64,000 nucleotides of DNA from positions 1-64,000 of the forward strand of contig JAGFJJ010000072.1 in assembly GCA_024102815.1 (NCBI GenBank), given 5' to 3'. Every line of letters begins with the position of its first letter. Positions within the stretch are counted from its first letter, which is position 1. The position numbers were made by a program, and so were the translations under genes. Below the pieces are notes generated by a model that was not told the DNA's origin, did not search any database, and saw nothing but the letters and a program-made list of their open reading frames with translations. Shown here piece by piece: positions 1-41,353 of this stretch. The stretch comes from Phycisphaerae bacterium (GTDB lineage Bacteria; Planctomycetota; Phycisphaerae; UBA1845).

Positions 1-71
1 CCTTTGTCCAGCAGCGTCATGGCTCGCAGGCGACGCCGCTCCAACTCCTCCGCTGTGCCTAGGGGTCTCAT
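1..71 (-). CDS. IS630-like transposase, N-terminal fragment at window edge
   Basis: A minus-strand ATG at 71-69 opens a frame that runs off the left edge. The 23 visible residues begin MRPLGTAEELERRRLRAM and continue to LLDKG. This resembles the N-terminus of IS630-type transposase ORFs and related helix-turn-helix proteins, in which G-T-A-(E/Q)-x-L-E-x-R-R-x-x-A-x-x-L-L is followed by an HTH. No terminal inverted repeat or TA target duplication could be placed. The gene next to it (78-326) lacks its 5' part, so this element may have truncated it; that is inference. A stand-alone HTH protein is the main alternative. Confidence 0.5.
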   Translation of the reverse strand, partial: MRPLGTAEELERRRLRAMTLLDK

Positions 72-77
72 GCATGA

Positions 78-326
78 CAATATCGGTTCAAGCAATACAC
101 TTTATTTACCCGATCAATGGTCAATAATGCGTCCCGCATGGACTGGCGAACCGGCTCGGCATTCGATTCCTGGAAGGAGCCACTGCATGTAGTGGCCAAG
201 AGCGATGACTGTCGCCAAATTCAGTTTATCAGCAGTGGCGCAAATCGACGATACGAGAATGGCCAAGGCGACGATATTTCGCAAAACGCCGAAGTACAGT
301 CCACCGACCTCAAGTATCCGCCGTGA
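78..326 (+). pseudogene. pseudopilin-like protein, C-terminal remnant
   Basis: The frame is open from 78, just after a stop at 75-77, and ends at 326. The first ATG is at 117. The product aligns with the C-terminal third of the protein at 1150-1704: DWRTGSAFDSWKEPLHVV against DWVTGKILDEWHLPLYIV, then S-x-G-x-N-R-(R/K)-(Y/F)-E-N-G-x-G-D-D-I in both. That ending resembles the C-terminal region of GspG-type pseudopilins (D-x-W-G-x-P, then S-x-G-x-D, then D-I). The transmembrane N-terminus present in the paralogue is missing, and an IS630-like fragment lies directly upstream. I read it as a truncated copy, probably non-functional. Confidence 0.5.
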
Positions 327-411
327 TGGAGCTGGAATGGCTCTCAAAAATGAATGACCCAGTGCCACGGATCCCGCCGATGCGGTTCGGCGGGCGCCAG
401 GTGCGTACAAT

Positions 412-852
412 ATGACGCGAATCTGCAAGAACTGTGAGTACATAATTGATGGACTACCGGAGAATCGCTGCCCGGAATGCGGCGAGCGATTCGACCCCGG
501 CGATCCGACTACTTTTGATGTAATGCCGCGCCAACGATGCTGGTTTCGCGATTCTGCGTACGTGCTATTCGTCTTCATCGCTGTCCTGGCAGCGTTTGCA
601 CGTCATCTGATGGATGCGATTCCAATGGACGCAGAGATTGAGAAATGGCTGTTGAGTGCTAGCCGCGAATTGCAGTCACTCGGGCGCATATTTGTCTTGG
701 TGGCAACGGCGGTTGGCAGCCTGCATGCAATCAATCGACGTCTCGCGGTTGGTACGCTGTTCTTGACCGCACTCCTGCTCGCATGGACGGCAACAATTCT
801 CGTCGTTATCGAGTGGCTGTTGGGCAGGGGTCTCTATTCGCCGGGTCTGTGA
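412..852 (+). CDS. Zinc-ribbon membrane protein, copy 1
   Basis: A 146-residue protein. An N-terminal zinc ribbon at residues 4-30 has the pattern C-x2-C-x3-IDGLPENRCPECG followed by FDPGDPTTF, a signature common in planctomycete hypothetical proteins. Three hydrophobic segments follow (roughly residues 47-62, 90-105 and 115-135). The function is unknown; the ribbon would be cytoplasmic if the rest is membrane-embedded. It is paralogous to the protein at 1839-2327, and each copy follows a pseudopilin-like gene, so a two-gene unit appears to have been duplicated. The start ATG gives the complete ribbon; no strong ribosome binding site is seen. Confidence 0.65.
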   Translation: MTRICKNCEYIIDGLPENRCPECGERFDPGDPTTFDVMPRQRCWFRDSAYVLFVFIAVLAAFARHLMDAIPMDAEIEKWLLSASRELQSLGRIFVLVATAVGSLHAINRRLAVGTLFLTALLLAWTATILVVIEWLLGRGLYSPGL

Positions 853-1149
853 AGATTATGGCAAGCCGTTTGGGCCCAACGGCCTGTCCCCCGAGTGCAG
901 GATGCCGACTGGTGAATAACGCTTATACATATGAAAACTCCGGCGTCTTTGCGTCAAATACGTATGCAGCCCCGACGAGACGCATCTCGGTCTTCTGTCG
1001 ATAAAGCCGGTCATGCACTCGCCGGTCCGAGTCAGATGATGGCCGACTTAATGGGTTAATCGTGCATGTGTGTAGGAATATGGTGGATATTCCATCTCCA
1101 ATGCACAGAATGATCGGAAGTACTGGGTTGATCGCATCGCGCAGTCTGT

Positions 1150-1704
1150 ATGATGACAAGACTGCAACGCATGCTTATAGTTGCATTTGGATGGCGTGAG
1201 GCAATGCCGGCAGACGATGACATTCAGAAATTCGCAAATTGCAGGCCACGCACATGGGTACGTTTTACGGCGATCATCCTGCCTAGCGTCGTTTTGTTCG
1301 GCCTGTGGCTTTGGTGGGCAATCGTTGCCCATGCGAGACACAAGTGGTACTTGGACAAGAAAAGAAGTCAGGATACGAGCCTAATGATGTTGATTGTAGC
1401 GGATAACCTACGGCCCATGACGTCCCCGTGCGCGGCCCTTCCCATGGGCCAGGCCCGAACGGATGTTGCCCTTTTTCTGGATGAGCGCCTCGATCTTGCT
1501 GATGAGGTGTTCATTGGATCCGCTGAACCCATAGACTGGGTCACGGGGAAGATACTGGATGAATGGCATTTACCCCTCTACATTGTCGCCGTATCGACTG
1601 ACTGTCGTCACGTTCAAGTTATCAGTTGCGGACCCAACAGGAAGTTTGAAAACGGATTGGGTGACGACATCGTGAGAAACGGGATTATAAGGGAGCCCTG
1701 GTAG
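1150..1704 (+). CDS. Pseudopilin-like single-pass membrane protein
   Basis: A 184-residue protein with one strong transmembrane segment at about residues 38-60 (FTAIILPSVVLFGLWLWWAI), preceded by a short charged N-terminus. Its C-terminal 60 residues resemble the end of type II secretion major pseudopilins: DEWHLPLYIVAV, then VISCGPNRKFENGLGDDI. The canonical prepilin cleavage site before the hydrophobic stretch is not obvious, and the hydrophobic segment starts later than in true pseudopilins. I therefore call it pseudopilin-like by C-terminus only. It is followed by the zinc-ribbon membrane protein at 1839, the same order as the damaged pair at 78-852. Confidence 0.5.
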   Translation: MMTRLQRMLIVAFGWREAMPADDDIQKFANCRPRTWVRFTAIILPSVVLFGLWLWWAIVAHARHKWYLDKKRSQDTSLMMLIVADNLRPMTSPCAALPMGQARTDVALFLDERLDLADEVFIGSAEPIDWVTGKILDEWHLPLYIVAVSTDCRHVQVISCGPNRKFENGLGDDIVRNGIIREPW

Positions 1705-1838
1705 GACAATGCGAGCAACGATCCTCAAACAGGTAATCCCTCCGGCAGACGAAAAAACCTGTGCGTGGCAGATGTTCGGTTCGCCTGCGGCAAAAGACCT
1801 GCTCTTGATTTCACGCGAGAACGAAATACGCCGTCAAT

Positions 1839-2327
1839 ATGAGCAATCCTTCTGATCAAGCCGATCGGCGCGACAATGCGCCAAAGTGCGCGACCAAACG
1901 TTGCGTGAAATGTGCCTACTGCCTTGATGGGCTGGCGGATAATCGCTGCCCGGAGTGCGGCAGACCCTTCGACCCCCACGATCCCCGCACGTATATTGAT
2001 GTTTCGGACAAGCGCCGTAAGGTCCCTGGGGTCATGTTCTTAATGGCTGTTTGCTTCTGCATCCTGTCTCTGTCAACGTTGCACCTGCCTACGGTTCTGG
2101 TTGACGAAGACATGAGCTTGGCAGTCCTTCGGCTTAGTAACTCGTTGGGGCCGTTGGGTTTCTTTGGACTTCTCGCCGCCGCACTAATCGGCAGTGGCGT
2201 GCTGCTCACTCGACGCTTCCGGATAGACTTGCCCTTCAAGGTGGGAGTGTCACTTGCCTGGACGGCAGTAGTTATCATCATCATTCAATTGCTCTTTAGT
2301 AAACAGATATTTTACGATGGGTTGTAG
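1839..2327 (+). CDS. Zinc-ribbon membrane protein, copy 2
   Basis: A 162-residue paralogue of 412-852. The ribbon C-x2-C-x3-LDGLADNRCPECG is followed by FDPHDPRTY at residues 22-53. Three or four hydrophobic segments follow (about 65-85, 105-125 and 135-155). The N-terminus is longer and charged (SNPSDQADRRDNAPK). Like copy 1 it ends soon after the last membrane segment. Its partner gene is the pseudopilin-like 1150-1704. The function is unknown; fusion of a ribbon to membrane helices is a recurring planctomycete design of undefined role. Confidence 0.65.
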   Translation: MSNPSDQADRRDNAPKCATKRCVKCAYCLDGLADNRCPECGRPFDPHDPRTYIDVSDKRRKVPGVMFLMAVCFCILSLSTLHLPTVLVDEDMSLAVLRLSNSLGPLGFFGLLAAALIGSGVLLTRRFRIDLPFKVGVSLAWTAVVIIIIQLLFSKQIFYDGL

Positions 2328-2375: not shown

Positions 2376-2858
2376 ATGCTGACCCTCTTCAAACGTCGCA
2401 AGTTCCTGGTCGTCAAGTCATTCAGGCTGCACGAAGAGGAGCTGTTCAGGCCGCGACCGAGGCTGCGCGAGCTGCTGGGCCTCTTGATCCATCAGGCCAT
2501 GCATGACGGCATGTACCGCATCCAGCTTGGCGTTGACGCCGCCACGAAGGAGCCCCATCTGCGCTACTTCGGCCCCGTGTTCTACGAAGAAGACAAACGT
2601 GAATGGTGGGAGATGGTACCGGCCCCCGCGCGGACCTACCCGCGGTTTCTTCAGATATGCATCTCTCTCGCGCAGCTCAGCAACGAACTCCCGCTGAGCG
2701 GTGTGATCCCCGCGCTGTACAATGGGAAGCGAATCGACCTGAGTTTCACGGTGCCGGACATGAACTCGTTCGAAATCGCCTGGGACCAGCGTTACGCCTC
2801 AATTCGAGGAACCTGTCTCCAGAACCGGGCAGAAACGCCCTTCAGCGAGGCCGAGTAG
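2376..2858 (+). CDS. GspE/PilB N-lobe-like protein
   Basis: A 160-residue protein with no signal peptide. The central region (LLIHQAMHDGMYRIQLGVD, then LRYFGPVFYEE, a Pro-rich turn, a helix around LQICISLAQLSNELPLSG and IDLSFTVP) resembles the N2 sub-domain that precedes the ATPase core in GspE/PilB secretion ATPases. There is no Walker A, so it cannot be an ATPase. The similarity is judged by eye and is tentative. The neighbouring pseudopilin-like gene fits a secretion-related theme. A decayed inverted copy lies at 40940-41353. Confidence 0.5.
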   Translation: MLTLFKRRKFLVVKSFRLHEEELFRPRPRLRELLGLLIHQAMHDGMYRIQLGVDAATKEPHLRYFGPVFYEEDKREWWEMVPAPARTYPRFLQICISLAQLSNELPLSGVIPALYNGKRIDLSFTVPDMNSFEIAWDQRYASIRGTCLQNRAETPFSEAE

Positions 2859-3145
2859 ACGGACGGCTTGTGCCACGGCCGCGCCTCGTGTCGATGTTGG
2901 TTGCCCCGACTGAGCCCCAAGCCCGCGCCCCGAACTCGATACGCACAACAACCAGTCGCACCAAAATCAGGCAAAAAGCAACACAGTCAATTGACAATGT
3001 TTGCTGCAATTTTAAGTTGAACGCTCAACTTAATGACCAGCGCCACATTTCGGGGCGCTCACTCGGCGCGCGCAATTCAGTGAGCGCCCTTGCGCGTTAT
3101 TACTTATGGAGGGCGAGTGGCAAGTCCGTGCCGCGAGGGCGACAC
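2456..3145. repeat. Long inverted repeat, copy 1 (intact)
   Basis: From the middle of the gene at 2376-2858 to about 3145, the sequence matches the reverse complement of 40672-41353. The match covers the coding region, the non-coding tail and two hairpins (3012-3033 and 3053-3089), ending near GGGCGAGTGGCAAGTCCGTG. Conserved blocks include a near-identical stretch at 3077-3110. Copy 1 keeps an open reading frame; copy 2 does not. The two copies are in opposite orientation about 37.5 kb apart. Confidence 0.75.
3012..3089. terminator. Two tandem hairpins downstream of the 2376 gene
   Basis: The first hairpin has a perfect 9 bp stem, TTAAGTTGA (3012-3020) with TCAACTTAA (3025-3033), around an ACGC loop. 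The second pairs GGGCGCTCACT (3053-3063) with AGTGAGCGCCC (3079-3089). Both are retained in the inverted copy near 40.7 kb. Neither is followed by a clear T-run, so a terminator role is uncertain; they may belong to a mobile module. Confidence 0.4.
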
Positions 3146-3628: not shown

Positions 3629-4873
3629 TTAATACCCCCCGGTTCGCCGCCAGCTCTTTGCCGGACCTGCCGGTCCGACGATTTCGTAGAGCAGCAGCGC
3701 CGCGTCCTGGGTGCCGATCCTCATGATGTCGGCGGAGAGCGGCGCTTCCATGAATTCCTGGTCCTCGATAAAGGCGTCGGCCACCGAACGGTCGTCCATC
3801 AGGGCCCGGTCATCGTCCACGTGATTCAGCCCGAGCAGGTGCCCGGCTTCGTGCGCGGCGACATTGCCAATGGCGACGGCCATTTCCTCGACCGTGGGCG
3901 TCCGAGAAAAAATGGAGGGCTGAAACGTCTCCGTGTAGATAATGCCATCGTCGCAATAATCCACGTTGTAATCGTCGACGTCCTCGGCAATGCCGAACAC
4001 GCCGGCGTCGTACCCTCCCAGGTAAATGCTCGAATATTCCGTGCCCGCGGGCAACGGCAGATCGTCCGAAGTCAGAACGGTCACGTTAAATCGCTGGTAG
4101 TTCTGCCGGACGGTCTCGAGGATGAGCTGCTTGAGATCGTCGTCTTTTCCGGCGTAAACGGCCGAGATAGCCGCTCCGCTGAAGGGATCCACGACCTGCC
4201 GGCCGAGGGTCTCGGAATTCAGCACGGTGCCGCGGAAGTCGAGCAGCAGAATTTGCCCGACGGCCGCGGGGATTTCCGCACCCCGCGTGACGGAAACGTC
4301 CGCGTAGTAGCCGCCGTTCTTTTGGCCCACTCCCGCGAACGCGGAATCCGTTACGACGAGGTAGTAGGGACTTCCCTCATGCCGGACGACGAAGTCAGAA
4401 ATGAGCGAATCCAGGTCGTTGCCGCTTATCGGAAGATCGACGCGGTCGTCGTTGGCCAGAACCAACCGGCCGAGGTTGTCGAAGAGAGCGATGGAAACAT
4501 CCAGGTCGGACGTCGGCGTTGACGCGTCGACGCTGATGCGGTCGCCGGCGCTCATCGGACCGAGGACGAACACGTCCAGATCGCCAGAGGACTCCACGGT
4601 TCCCTGGAGTCGAGCTAATCCGTTTTCATTAAAAAAGGCCGTGATGGGCGAAGCGAACGTGTCGTTGGGTTCACCGAAGTATTTTCCCGGGCCGGTCGTG
4701 CCGGGATCGAGGCCGCGATTGCCGTCGGTGGGATTCACCTCCGGAGGCGGCAATATGCTGGGGGTGAAACCGCACCCGCCCAACGCCAGTACAAGGGTCG
4801 AGGCAAGCACGAAGGTGCATGATGTACGGGCGAGGAGTGAGCAAGTGGTTTTCACGAATGGATCATCGTCCAA
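3629..4873 (-). CDS. Metzincin-like metalloprotease lipoprotein
   Basis: A 414-residue protein. A signal peptide ends in a lipobox LALGGC (Cys at about 34), which predicts a lipid-anchored exported protein. Residues about 65-200 look like a bacterial pre-peptidase (PPC) beta-sandwich: a GDLDVFVLGPM strand, then repeated Asp-rich strands and YYLVV. The C-terminal half carries HEAGHLLGLNH, an exact HExxHxxGxxH zinc signature, followed by an ALMDD stretch that could be the Met-turn. It is likely a secreted zinc endopeptidase. A paralogue with the same layout follows on the same strand at 5033-6292 (160 bp apart). GTG at 4855 is an alternative start. Confidence 0.8.
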   Translation of the reverse strand: MDDDPFVKTTCSLLARTSCTFVLASTLVLALGGCGFTPSILPPPEVNPTDGNRGLDPGTTGPGKYFGEPNDTFASPITAFFNENGLARLQGTVESSGDLDVFVLGPMSAGDRISVDASTPTSDLDVSIALFDNLGRLVLANDDRVDLPISGNDLDSLISDFVVRHEGSPYYLVVTDSAFAGVGQKNGGYYADVSVTRGAEIPAAVGQILLLDFRGTVLNSETLGRQVVDPFSGAAISAVYAGKDDDLKQLILETVRQNYQRFNVTVLTSDDLPLPAGTEYSSIYLGGYDAGVFGIAEDVDDYNVDYCDDGIIYTETFQPSIFSRTPTVEEMAVAIGNVAAHEAGHLLGLNHVDDDRALMDDRSVADAFIEDQEFMEAPLSADIMRIGTQDAALLLYEIVGPAGPAKSWRRTGGY

Positions 4874-5032: not shown

Positions 5033-6292
5033 TCAGTGCTCCTCCAGTCCGCAGGTGCTGAACAGGAGCTGTGTGCGACAGGCCGGGCCTGCGGACTTGG
5101 CCGAGACGGCTTTGCTCGCTTCCGCGCGCTGCCGGGCGAGCACGAAGTCCTCGTCGCCACCAAGGGAATCGAGCAGGCATCTCGGGGCGTCCTGCTGGCC
5201 CACGGGGAATACATCGCGGTAGATCGGCGACTTGCGGAAGGACTGGTTTTCCATGAGGTCGCGGAGGCTGGCGGTGACGTCCATGAGTCCGCGGCGGTCG
5301 GCCGTGTGGACCAGTCCGAGCAGGTGTCCGATTTCGTGGCTGGCGACATTGGCCAGGGCCTGGGCCATCTGCGTCGTGTTGGGGCGCAGGATGCCGAAGG
5401 CGGTGAAAGTGTCCGTAAAGACGATGGCGGTCTGGTGCTGTCGGCTGTTGAACTCGTCGACGCCCTCGGCCACTCCCAGCAGGGCGGCGTCGAAGGTGCC
5501 GAAGTAGATGCGGGTCATGGTTCCGTCGTCGAAGGCGCCTTCGCTGGTGGAGTAGATCTCCACGTCGAATCCGGCGAAGTCGTCGCGCACGTCGGCAACA
5601 AGGGCGCGAATGATATCTTCGGTCCGGCCGGTGAAATTGGGATCGATGGTGGCGGCGTCAAAAACGGGCACGTCGACGGCCGGCCGTCCGCCCACCACCA
5701 CGTCGTCGCCCCCGTTGAAGATCAGCAGGACGCGGTCGGGCTGAGGCGCCAGCGGGACTGCGCCCGTGGTTCGCGTGGCGACGAGGCCGTAGTCGCCGTT
5801 GGCGCTGTATCCGGGTGTCGCGGCCACGGCGACGTACAGGGCGTCGGAGGGGCGCCGGGCGACGATGTCGATGAACGGATCGCGCACGCCGAGATAGACG
5901 TTGCGATGGTCGTTGACCAGGAGTGCCGAATCGGTGTCATCGAAGGCGGCGATGGCGCCGTCCAGGGTCTCGTCGGTGGCCATGCGGACCACGATGTGGT
6001 CGCCGGTTTCCACCGGGCCGAGGTCGAAGACATCCACGTCGTCGGGACTGTCGATGGTGCCGCGGATGATCCGCGGATCGGCGGCGAAGGCGACGTACTC
6101 GGCCAGGTCGAGCAGGTCGTTGGCGTCGGATTCGTGGAAAGTGGACTCATCCTCGACGAGCGAGGAGAGGGTCAGGGTCGGCGCGCGGCCGACGGTGCCG
6201 GGCAACAGATTCGTTCCACAACCAGAGATCAGGAGCAGCGCCGCGGACGGCGCCGCGTACGCGGCGAGGCGATCGAGGACGAGCACGGACAA
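5033..6292 (-). CDS. Metzincin-like metalloprotease lipoprotein, paralogue
   Basis: A 419-residue paralogue of 3629-4873 in the same order: signal peptide with lipobox LLISGC, a linker with an Asp/Glu-rich patch, a PPC-like sandwich (DDVDVFDLGPVETGD), then a catalytic region with HEIGHLLGLVH and a following GLMD turn. Both zinc signatures are complete, so both enzymes may be active. The predicted start is TTG at 6292; GTG at 6286 is nearly equivalent. Its C-terminus is longer than in the paralogue and Cys-containing. This gene is upstream in transcription, and the two may share a transcript. Confidence 0.78.
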   Translation of the reverse strand: MSVLVLDRLAAYAAPSAALLLISGCGTNLLPGTVGRAPTLTLSSLVEDESTFHESDANDLLDLAEYVAFAADPRIIRGTIDSPDDVDVFDLGPVETGDHIVVRMATDETLDGAIAAFDDTDSALLVNDHRNVYLGVRDPFIDIVARRPSDALYVAVAATPGYSANGDYGLVATRTTGAVPLAPQPDRVLLIFNGGDDVVVGGRPAVDVPVFDAATIDPNFTGRTEDIIRALVADVRDDFAGFDVEIYSTSEGAFDDGTMTRIYFGTFDAALLGVAEGVDEFNSRQHQTAIVFTDTFTAFGILRPNTTQMAQALANVASHEIGHLLGLVHTADRRGLMDVTASLRDLMENQSFRKSPIYRDVFPVGQQDAPRCLLDSLGGDEDFVLARQRAEASKAVSAKSAGPACRTQLLFSTCGLEEH

Positions 6293-40517: not shown

Positions 40518-40680
40518 CGACGCAAGGGCGGTACGTCGCGGGGTCTTCACCAGCGCGCAGGCCGCGCTGCTGAGCAACAGCCGCAACTGGTTGGCCACAA
40601 AAGAGTGGCAACTGGCCCGATCGGCGAAGAGCATAAGCTGCTGCTCCTTGATGCGGTTCTTCAGGTTCCCGCGCGGCTTG
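40518..40680 (-). mobile_element. IS1380-family transposase, C-terminal remnant
   Basis: A minus-strand frame reads ISKPRG, NLKNRIKEQQLMLFADR, ASCHSFVANQLRLLLSSA and ALVKTPRRTALA. This is the characteristic C-terminal part of IS1380 transposases (E-N-x-I-K-E, then D-R-x-S-C-x-x-x-x-A-N-Q-x-R-L-L-L). The catalytic DDE region is absent and the sequence drifts off after TALAS. It abuts the end of inverted-repeat copy 2, suggesting the element or its loss was involved in breaking that copy. Confidence 0.75.
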
Positions 40681-41353
40681 GATATGCCACGGGCCCTCCA
40701 TAGGTAATAACGCGCAAGGGCGCTCACTGAATTACGCGCGCCGAGTGAGCGCCCCGAAATGTGGCGCGGTCATTTAGTTGAGCGTTCAACTCAAAATAGC
40801 AGCAAAAATCATGGCCTGACTGTGTTGCTTTATTCACAACCATGCTGAGAAGCGGTCGTAATGCGTATCGAATTCGGGGCGCGGGGGAGGGGTTCTGTCG
40901 GGGGCGGAATGCACTGCTCCGATGCGTAATCGCGTCGCATGCTGTGCACCAATTCGGGCTCGCTGATAGGCGTCTTCGCTCGGCTCTGGAGACTGGTTCC
41001 TCGAATCGAGGCGTGACGTTGGTCCCATGCGATTTCGAACGAGTTCATGTAGGGGGCCGTGGGATTCACGTCGATTCGCTTTTCATTGTATACAACCCGG
41101 GGATCACACCGATCAGGGAGAGTTCGTTACTGAGCTGCACGAAAGAGATACAGTTTTGAAGCAAGCGAGGGTAGGTCCATGCGGGGCCGGAACCATCTCC
41201 CACCATCCGCGTCATTCCTCTTCATAGAACAGGGTGCCGAAGCAGCGCATATGTTGCTTTCTCACGGCAGCACCAACGCCAAGCCGAGTGCGGTAAATGC
41301 CTTCAAGCATCGCCCGATGGATCAAGTGGCCCAGGAGCTCGCGCAGCCGGGGA
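40672..41353. repeat. Long inverted repeat, copy 2 (decayed)
   Basis: This is the reverse complement of 2456-3145 with substitutions and small indels. The hairpin TTGAGTTGAACGCTCAACT and the block GTGAGCGCCCTTGCGCGTTA are retained. The coding part is broken. Similarity stops abruptly near 41353 and near the IS1380 remnant at about 40672. Confidence 0.75.
40940..41353 (-). pseudogene. Decayed copy of the 2376-2858 gene
   Basis: Minus-strand translation gives RLRELLGHLIHRAM, then FYEE followed by an in-frame TGA where the intact gene has EEDKRE, then GWWEMVPAPHG, after which the frame is lost. Further on, NSFEIAWDQRHASIRGT reappears in another frame. The stop codon region is also changed. The N-terminal ~25 codons are missing. 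Confidence 0.75.

What the first reader, a model, noticed from the sequence alone, without database searches (positions are those of the whole stretch)
78..2327. Tandemly duplicated pair: pseudopilin-like gene plus zinc-ribbon membrane gene
Order and paralogy repeat: 78-326 then 412-852, and 1150-1704 then 1839-2327. The first pseudopilin-like copy is truncated next to an IS630-like fragment. A GspE-N-lobe-like gene without an ATPase core follows. Together they hint at a degenerate or divergent secretion-like apparatus whose zinc-ribbon partner is undescribed.
Basis: partly seen in the sequence, partly recalled or inferred. Interest (0 to 1): 0.55.

Follow-up and report, generated by a model that had tools for sequence, protein, structure and literature searches.

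The report
Repurposed pseudopilin domain beside zinc-ribbon proteins
A planctomycete carries a duplicated two-gene unit in which a piece of a secretion-system protein, without its usual processing signal, sits next to a zinc-binding membrane protein; it looks like reuse of a secretion part as a membrane module, not a broken secretion machine.

Summary
p1-z1-p2-z2 is a diverged tandem duplication (p 48% identity over 60 aa; z 32% over 145 aa), and the gene behind it does resemble the N-lobe of GspE without the ATPase. The first p copy is not truncated at its start: an IS630-type element is inserted in it, and its front half lies on another contig. A third pair, p3-z3, exists elsewhere in the genome and was recovered by a profile that lacked it. 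In one relative the same two domains are fused in two proteins. The pairing is nevertheless rare: 0 of 69 phylum loci and 0 of 29 z-like loci show it. Profile comparison supports GspG C-terminal homology, but p1, p2 and p3 lack the prepilin cleavage motif and score below Pfam's cut-off. No secretion genes were seen beside the pairs. The ribbon motif is a large family (47 reading frames here; hits in 114 of 114 genomes of the order). Elsewhere in the phylum the same GspG-like domain occurs directly behind ECF sigma genes (10 of 69 loci). Best reading: a reused GspG-type ectodomain paired with a cytoplasmic zinc module. Function is not shown.

The parts
1..124 (-). End of an IS630-type insertion sequence; start of the transposase gene reads leftward. 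The rest of the IS is on contig C7:1-1032
   Evidence: Window 1-126/128 is 98-100% identical to C21, C35, C63, C18; edges and TA duplication; HTH_33, HTH_29 and DDE_3 above Pfam cut-offs
125..326 (+). 3' part of p1, GspG-C-like domain; 5' part on contig C7:1033-1322 (minus)
412..852 (+). z1: N-terminal four-Cys zinc ribbon plus hydrophobic membrane segments, 146 aa
1150..1704 (+). p2: single membrane segment (about residues 41-60) plus GspG-C-like domain, 184 aa; an alternative start is 1204
1839..2327 (+). z2: N-terminal four-Cys zinc ribbon plus three predicted membrane helices, 162 aa
2376..2858 (+). gene 5: stand-alone domain like the N-lobe of GspE, no ATPase core, 160 aa
   Evidence: Relatives in 11 of 114 genomes including own; profile match to GspE N-lobe
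40668..41348 (-). Decayed inverted copy of the 3' part of gene 5 and the DNA after it (79% over 683 bp, matching 2461-3139)

Best explanation
The locus carries two diverged copies of a two-gene membrane unit. The p gene makes a protein anchored by one uncleaved helix whose C-terminal domain descends from the GspG pseudopilin domain and faces the periplasm. The z gene makes a protein with a cytoplasmic zinc ribbon and about three membrane helices. The two most likely work together in the inner membrane, as a reused pseudopilin ectodomain coupled to a cytoplasmic zinc module, perhaps for sensing or regulation. Shown by sequence: the duplication, the third pair, the fusions, the GspG and GspE-N-lobe relationships, the missing prepilin motif, the IS insertion. 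Inferred: topology, zinc binding, physical partnership, and any sensing role. One copy is probably inactive because of the IS.
For: Tandem duplication of p and z in the same order. Third pair p3-z3 on C48, a few bases apart on one strand, found by a profile without p3 at E 5.5e-4, next hit 0.1, and also among the 4 T2SSG hits in the genome, E 2.6. z3 is also the nearest ribbon gene to z2 after z1. Two proteins in G018 join membrane helix, GspG-C-like domain and C-terminal ribbon. Profile comparison with GspG: E 6.9e-6 (5 GspG rows) and 4.6e-4 (9 rows), 0 of 100 shuffles each. Elsewhere in the phylum the domain occurs in proteins directly behind ECF sigma genes: 10 of 69 loci, four of the sigma genes confirmed by Pfam; L134 has zf-HC2 and T2SSG both over cut-off.
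Against: The pairing is rare: of 11 non-own matches in the order two are fusions and nine had no ribbon in the stretch searched; 0 of 69 phylum loci had a genuine ribbon; 0 of 29 z-like loci had the GspG-C-like domain. Ribbon genes are common (47 in 5.1 Mb), so one adjacency could be chance. No ECF gene or zf-HC2 domain was recognised at the window pairs. The AlphaFold model of p2 is weak (pLDDT 57.6, pTM 0.30) and Foldseek found nothing. No expression or biochemical data exist here.
Confidence: 0.45

Rival explanations
1. Degenerate or divergent secretion apparatus: p is a pseudopilin, gene 5 a leftover of the secretion ATPase, z an unknown scaffold.
For: GspG-C-like and GspE-N-lobe-like genes lie within 3 kb. 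p2's model has a long N-terminal helix then strands, as in pilins, though at low confidence.
Against: No prepilin motif in p1, p2 or p3. No secretion gene recognised in the reading frames listed next to the pairs. Gene 5 is unlinked to p or z in 10 other loci. The genome has its own GspG (2 hits over cut-off) and 13 T2SSE-family matches.
Confidence: 0.12
2. A gene-turnover spot: lineage-specific membrane genes that duplicate, decay and drift, with no joint function.
For: IS inside p1, decayed inverted gene-5 copy, a Y1 (IS200-like) transposase gene on C7 just upstream, slightly below its Pfam cut-off, patchy distribution: 10 of 114 genomes for p, 11 of 114 for gene 5.
Against: Codon-position pattern shows protein-level constraint on both pairs; the pair recurs at a second locus and as fusions; all four ribbon cysteines are kept in z1, z2 and z3.
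Confidence: 0.3
3. Accessory or decoy pseudopilin: p is not processed but docks on the genome's own type II secretion or type IV pilus machinery and regulates it, with z as its anchor.
For: GspG-like domain with conserved DD and glycine positions; secretion genes elsewhere in the genome; gene 5 resembles the GspE N-lobe.
Against: No linkage to those genes; no interaction data.
Confidence: 0.13

Closest known systems
GspG, major pseudopilin of type II secretion (Pfam T2SSG, PF08334)
   Same: C-terminal motif DxWxxP ... SxGxN ... ExGxGDD lines up with GspG of planctomycetes and, weakly, with PDB 2kep
   Different: No prepilin peptidase motif; all window members under the Pfam cut-off; not beside secretion genes
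GspE/PilB ATPase (Pfam T2SSE, PF00437)
   Same: Gene 5 aligns over 86 columns with the N-lobe
   Different: No Walker A or any ATPase core; about 160 aa alone
ECF anti-sigma factors (zf-HC2 + membrane helix + ectodomain)
   Same: Other planctomycete proteins put a GspG-C-like domain behind a membrane helix and next to ECF sigma genes
   Different: p and z have no zf-HC2 domain and no ECF gene was recognised next to them
Zinc-ribbon domains (Pfam Zn_ribbon_3, DZR)
   Same: CxxC ... CPxC four-cysteine pattern
   Different: All Pfam scores below cut-off; the YxLxGLxxxRCPECG / GNxSGxCPECG signature with membrane helices forms its own large planctomycete family
IS630-family insertion sequences
   Same: HTH plus DDE_3 transposase, TA duplication, imperfect inverted ends
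   Different: Transposase frame is split in two; nothing unusual

Membership tests
GspG pseudopilin | Prepilin peptidase site (G/A-F-T-x-x-E) before the hydrophobic helix | tested here: not met
   Sequences of p1, p2, p3 read directly; p2 has R-F-T-A-I-I, p1 R-F-F-L-L-V, p3 no similar motif. Motif itself recalled
GspG pseudopilin | Match to Pfam T2SSG over its curated cut-off | tested here: not met
   p1, p2: no match; p3 E 2.6 below cut-off. 3 of 10 rows of A2 match T2SSG, best E 0.023
GspG pseudopilin | Homologous C-terminal domain | tested here: met
   hhalign E 6.9e-6 and 4.6e-4 against two GspG sets, 0 of 100 shuffles each; unrelated profile GspE E 0.67
GspG pseudopilin | Calcium site | not testable with these tools
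   The DD pair is conserved; calcium in the major pseudopilin is the subject of Korotkov 2009, seen only as cited in PMC6211770 and PMC5131608 (passages)
GspE/PilB ATPase | N-lobe domain | tested here: met
   hhalign E 6.4e-5, 0 of 150 shuffles; an earlier gappy version gave E 1.3e-5 with 2 of 100 shuffles as high
GspE/PilB ATPase | Walker A/B ATPase core | tested here: not met
   160-aa gene without it; no Pfam family at E up to 10
Zinc ribbon | Four metal-ligand cysteines | tested here: met
   All four kept in z1, z2, z3; metal binding not tested
ECF anti-sigma factor | ECF sigma gene directly upstream and zf-HC2 domain | tested here: not met
   No zf-HC2 in z1, p2, z2; no ECF hit beside p3 by profile (L246). 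For the window pair only frame listings were read, no sigma profile was run there
IS630 insertion sequence | DDE_3 transposase, TA target duplication, inverted ends | tested here: met

The most novel reading that the evidence does not exclude
In Planctomycetota the GspG C-terminal domain has been lifted out of the secretion pseudopilus and reused as a periplasmic sensor module. It is wired across the membrane to zinc-binding cytoplasmic modules: in one chain with anti-sigma-type domains behind ECF sigma genes, in one chain with a planctomycete zinc ribbon (G018), or in two chains (p and z) in this genome.
Probability: 0.25. Interest if true: 0.65.

Novelty: new variant of a known kind. Interest (0 to 1): 0.42.

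Why it matters
If right, it shows how a structural part of a secretion machine can become a signalling or membrane module, and it gives a testable handle on two large sets of unnamed planctomycete membrane proteins: those with the GspG-type ectodomain and those with the zinc ribbon. It would also warn annotators not to count such genes as secretion components.

Tried and rejected
Viral contigs: p2 finds nothing. PADLOC: nothing for six proteins; PHROGs: only weak matches of unknown function. PDB sequence search: gene 5 nothing; z profile only generic zinc fingers and Spt4-like ribbons at the top; A2 profile best 2kep GspG, E 0.43, tied with an unrelated protein at the same E-value. Structure prediction: gene 5 pLDDT 45, not used; p2 pLDDT 57.6, Foldseek E 0.67 at best with no pilin among the 50 matches printed. 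The genome-contig scan gave four loci, of which L105 and L106 showed no motif match. The apparent ribbons at L268 and L098 are different Cys motifs. The idea that p2's N-terminus derives from a ribbon gene (shared FGWR) was looked at and dropped as weak. General co-occurrence of p and z was tested and rejected. Literature: seven searches for this domain, the ribbon or the combination and one for GspE N-domain in planctomycetes showed no paper on it in the listings; the library holds open-licence papers only.

Full report
What is there. The window starts at the end of a contig (C72 of a 79-contig, 5.09-Mb assembly). The genome belongs to Planctomycetota: relative G021 of the same family matches a record titled Planctomycetota bacterium (the two contigs have the same length and the same encoded 83 residues). 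Reading rightward: the end of an IS, the 3' part of p1, z1, p2, z2 and gene 5. p1 and p2 are paralogues (48% over 60 aa) and so are z1 and z2 (32% over 145 aa). At DNA level little survives (80% over 61 bp in z), so the duplication is old; second codon positions are the most alike and third positions the least.

The IS. Window 1-126/128 is shared with four other contigs at 98-100%. The edge is at the TA of window 125-126. Contig C7 begins with the same IS (60 identical bases) and leaves it at a TA at 1033. The ends are imperfect inverted repeats. The IS has winged-HTH and DDE_3 domains, split over two frames, as in many IS630 elements (recalled). The piece of p1 on C7 covers p2 residues 34-113 and the piece in the window 118-180. 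Joined at the TA they form one 162-aa frame with a membrane helix near the start. The 60-base overlap alone would not prove the join, since other contigs also end in the IS; the matching halves and frame do most of the work, so the join is a strong inference. Further upstream on C7 lies an IS200-like transposase frame, just under its Pfam cut-off (22.7 against 23 bits).

A third pair. Searching the genome with z2 gave 66 matches; after z2 and z1 the best was a ribbon gene on C48. Its upstream neighbour, 7 bases away on the same strand if the earliest GTG start is used (31 if the later ATG is used), is a 169-aa protein, p3, with one hydrophobic segment and the same C-terminal motif. As p3 was first seen through its ribbon neighbour, I searched again with a profile of p1, p2 and a G021 protein only: p3 came third at E 5.5e-4, the next match at 0.1. 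The Pfam T2SSG model, which knows nothing of these genes, also lists p3, at E 2.6, last of four hits. So in this genome all three recognisable genes of this type stand directly upstream of a ribbon gene. With 47 ribbon frames in the genome, and assuming about one gene per 1.1 kb, one such adjacency has a chance of roughly 1%; this is an estimate, not a computed test, and ribbon genes may cluster.

Relatives. In 114 genomes of the order, a four-row profile found 10 genomes with a match including this one, 11 matches outside it. Two of these, both in G018, are single proteins with an N-terminal helix, the GspG-C-like domain, further membrane helices, an arginine-rich stretch and a C-terminal zinc ribbon. 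One of them is the first of three overlapping ribbon genes. One match, G028, is an ordinary pilin. In the other direction, 29 z-like loci of other genomes had no GspG-C-like neighbour within the fetched flanks (best E 0.38). In the phylum, 152 of 392 genomes have the domain. I looked at 69 of those loci (29 given by the tool, 40 picked by hand): none has a genuine ribbon, 14 carry a pilin-type motif by a simple pattern and 10 lie directly behind an ECF sigma gene.

What the p proteins are. Nine rows without the Verrucomicrobia row, compared by hhalign with GspG of relatives, gave score 36.7, E 6.9e-6 against five rows and score 27.3, E 4.6e-4 against nine rows; 0 of 100 column shuffles reached either. 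The unrelated pairings gave E 0.67 and 0.83. E-values are for one comparison. Against the PDB the best hit of A2 was GspG 2kep at E 0.43, not significant and tied with an unrelated protein. None of p1, p2, p3 has the pilin motif or reaches the Pfam cut-off. They are relatives of the GspG domain, not members of the pseudopilin family.

Gene 5. It has relatives in 11 of 114 genomes including this one. A cleaned eight-row profile matched the N-lobe of 26 GspE/PilB-type proteins over 86 columns, E 6.4e-5, 0 of 150 shuffles as high; an earlier version with gappy columns gave E 1.3e-5 but 2 of 100 shuffles were as high, the highest at an odd score of 135 that I did not trace. It is not linked to p or z in 10 other loci. 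A decayed inverted copy lies at 40668-41348.

How it may work. Elsewhere in the phylum the GspG-C-like domain ends proteins that begin with a cytoplasmic zinc-finger-like part, cross the membrane once and follow an ECF sigma gene. In L134 both zf-HC2 and T2SSG pass their cut-offs; in L125 and L128 T2SSG passes and zf-HC2 stays below. Four of the sigma genes were confirmed by Pfam. By analogy the window pair can be read as the same idea on two chains: an outer GspG-type domain (p) and an inner zinc module (z). This step is inference. The window pair has no recognised ECF gene or zf-HC2 domain, and nothing is known about expression, zinc or calcium binding, or contact between p and z.

Papers. 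I saw passages of PMC6211770 and PMC5131608 on pseudopilins and calcium; for all other papers only search listings with the starts of abstracts. The listings showed no paper on a GspG domain in anti-sigma-like proteins or on this ribbon family; the library is limited to open-licence papers.

Verdict. Real, mostly correctly observed, with one correction (insertion, not truncation). The apparatus reading is weak; reuse of a GspG-type domain as a membrane module is the better reading, at moderate confidence. Interest is moderate: the wider pattern (reused GspG domain, very large ribbon family) is more interesting than the locus.

Noticed in passing
Whole genome G000; window 412-852 and 1839-2327 as members: A four-cysteine ribbon (YxLxGLxxxRCPECG or GNxSGxCPECG) occurs in 47 reading frames of this genome, 42 with a predicted membrane segment, more often C-terminal than N-terminal, and a z1-z3 profile hits 114 of 114 genomes of the order; no Pfam model reaches its cut-off on the ones tested.
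   Followed up: partly
L108, L111, L119, L131, L134, L258, L263, L265, L272, L276: GspG-C-like domains in proteins directly behind ECF sigma genes in other planctomycetes, in some with a zf-HC2-like zinc finger.
   Followed up: partly
L112, L116, L123: GspG-C-like domain at the end of proteins that begin with or resemble WD40 beta-propellers; WD40 confirmed by Pfam for L112 and L123.
   Followed up: no
window 3629-4873 and 5033-6292, minus strand: Two neighbouring genes with matrixin-type (Peptidase_M10) zinc metalloprotease matches over Pfam's cut-off, likely a second tandem duplication.
   Followed up: no
window 2461-3139 and 40668-41348: Inverted 683-bp duplication, 79% identical, 38 kb apart; the second copy carries stops in the gene-5 frame.
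   Followed up: partly
L049 (C48:140500-144500): A z-like ribbon membrane gene stands between a gene that looks like a HEPN-type protein and an AAA-type ATPase; the names are by eye, not tested.
   Followed up: no
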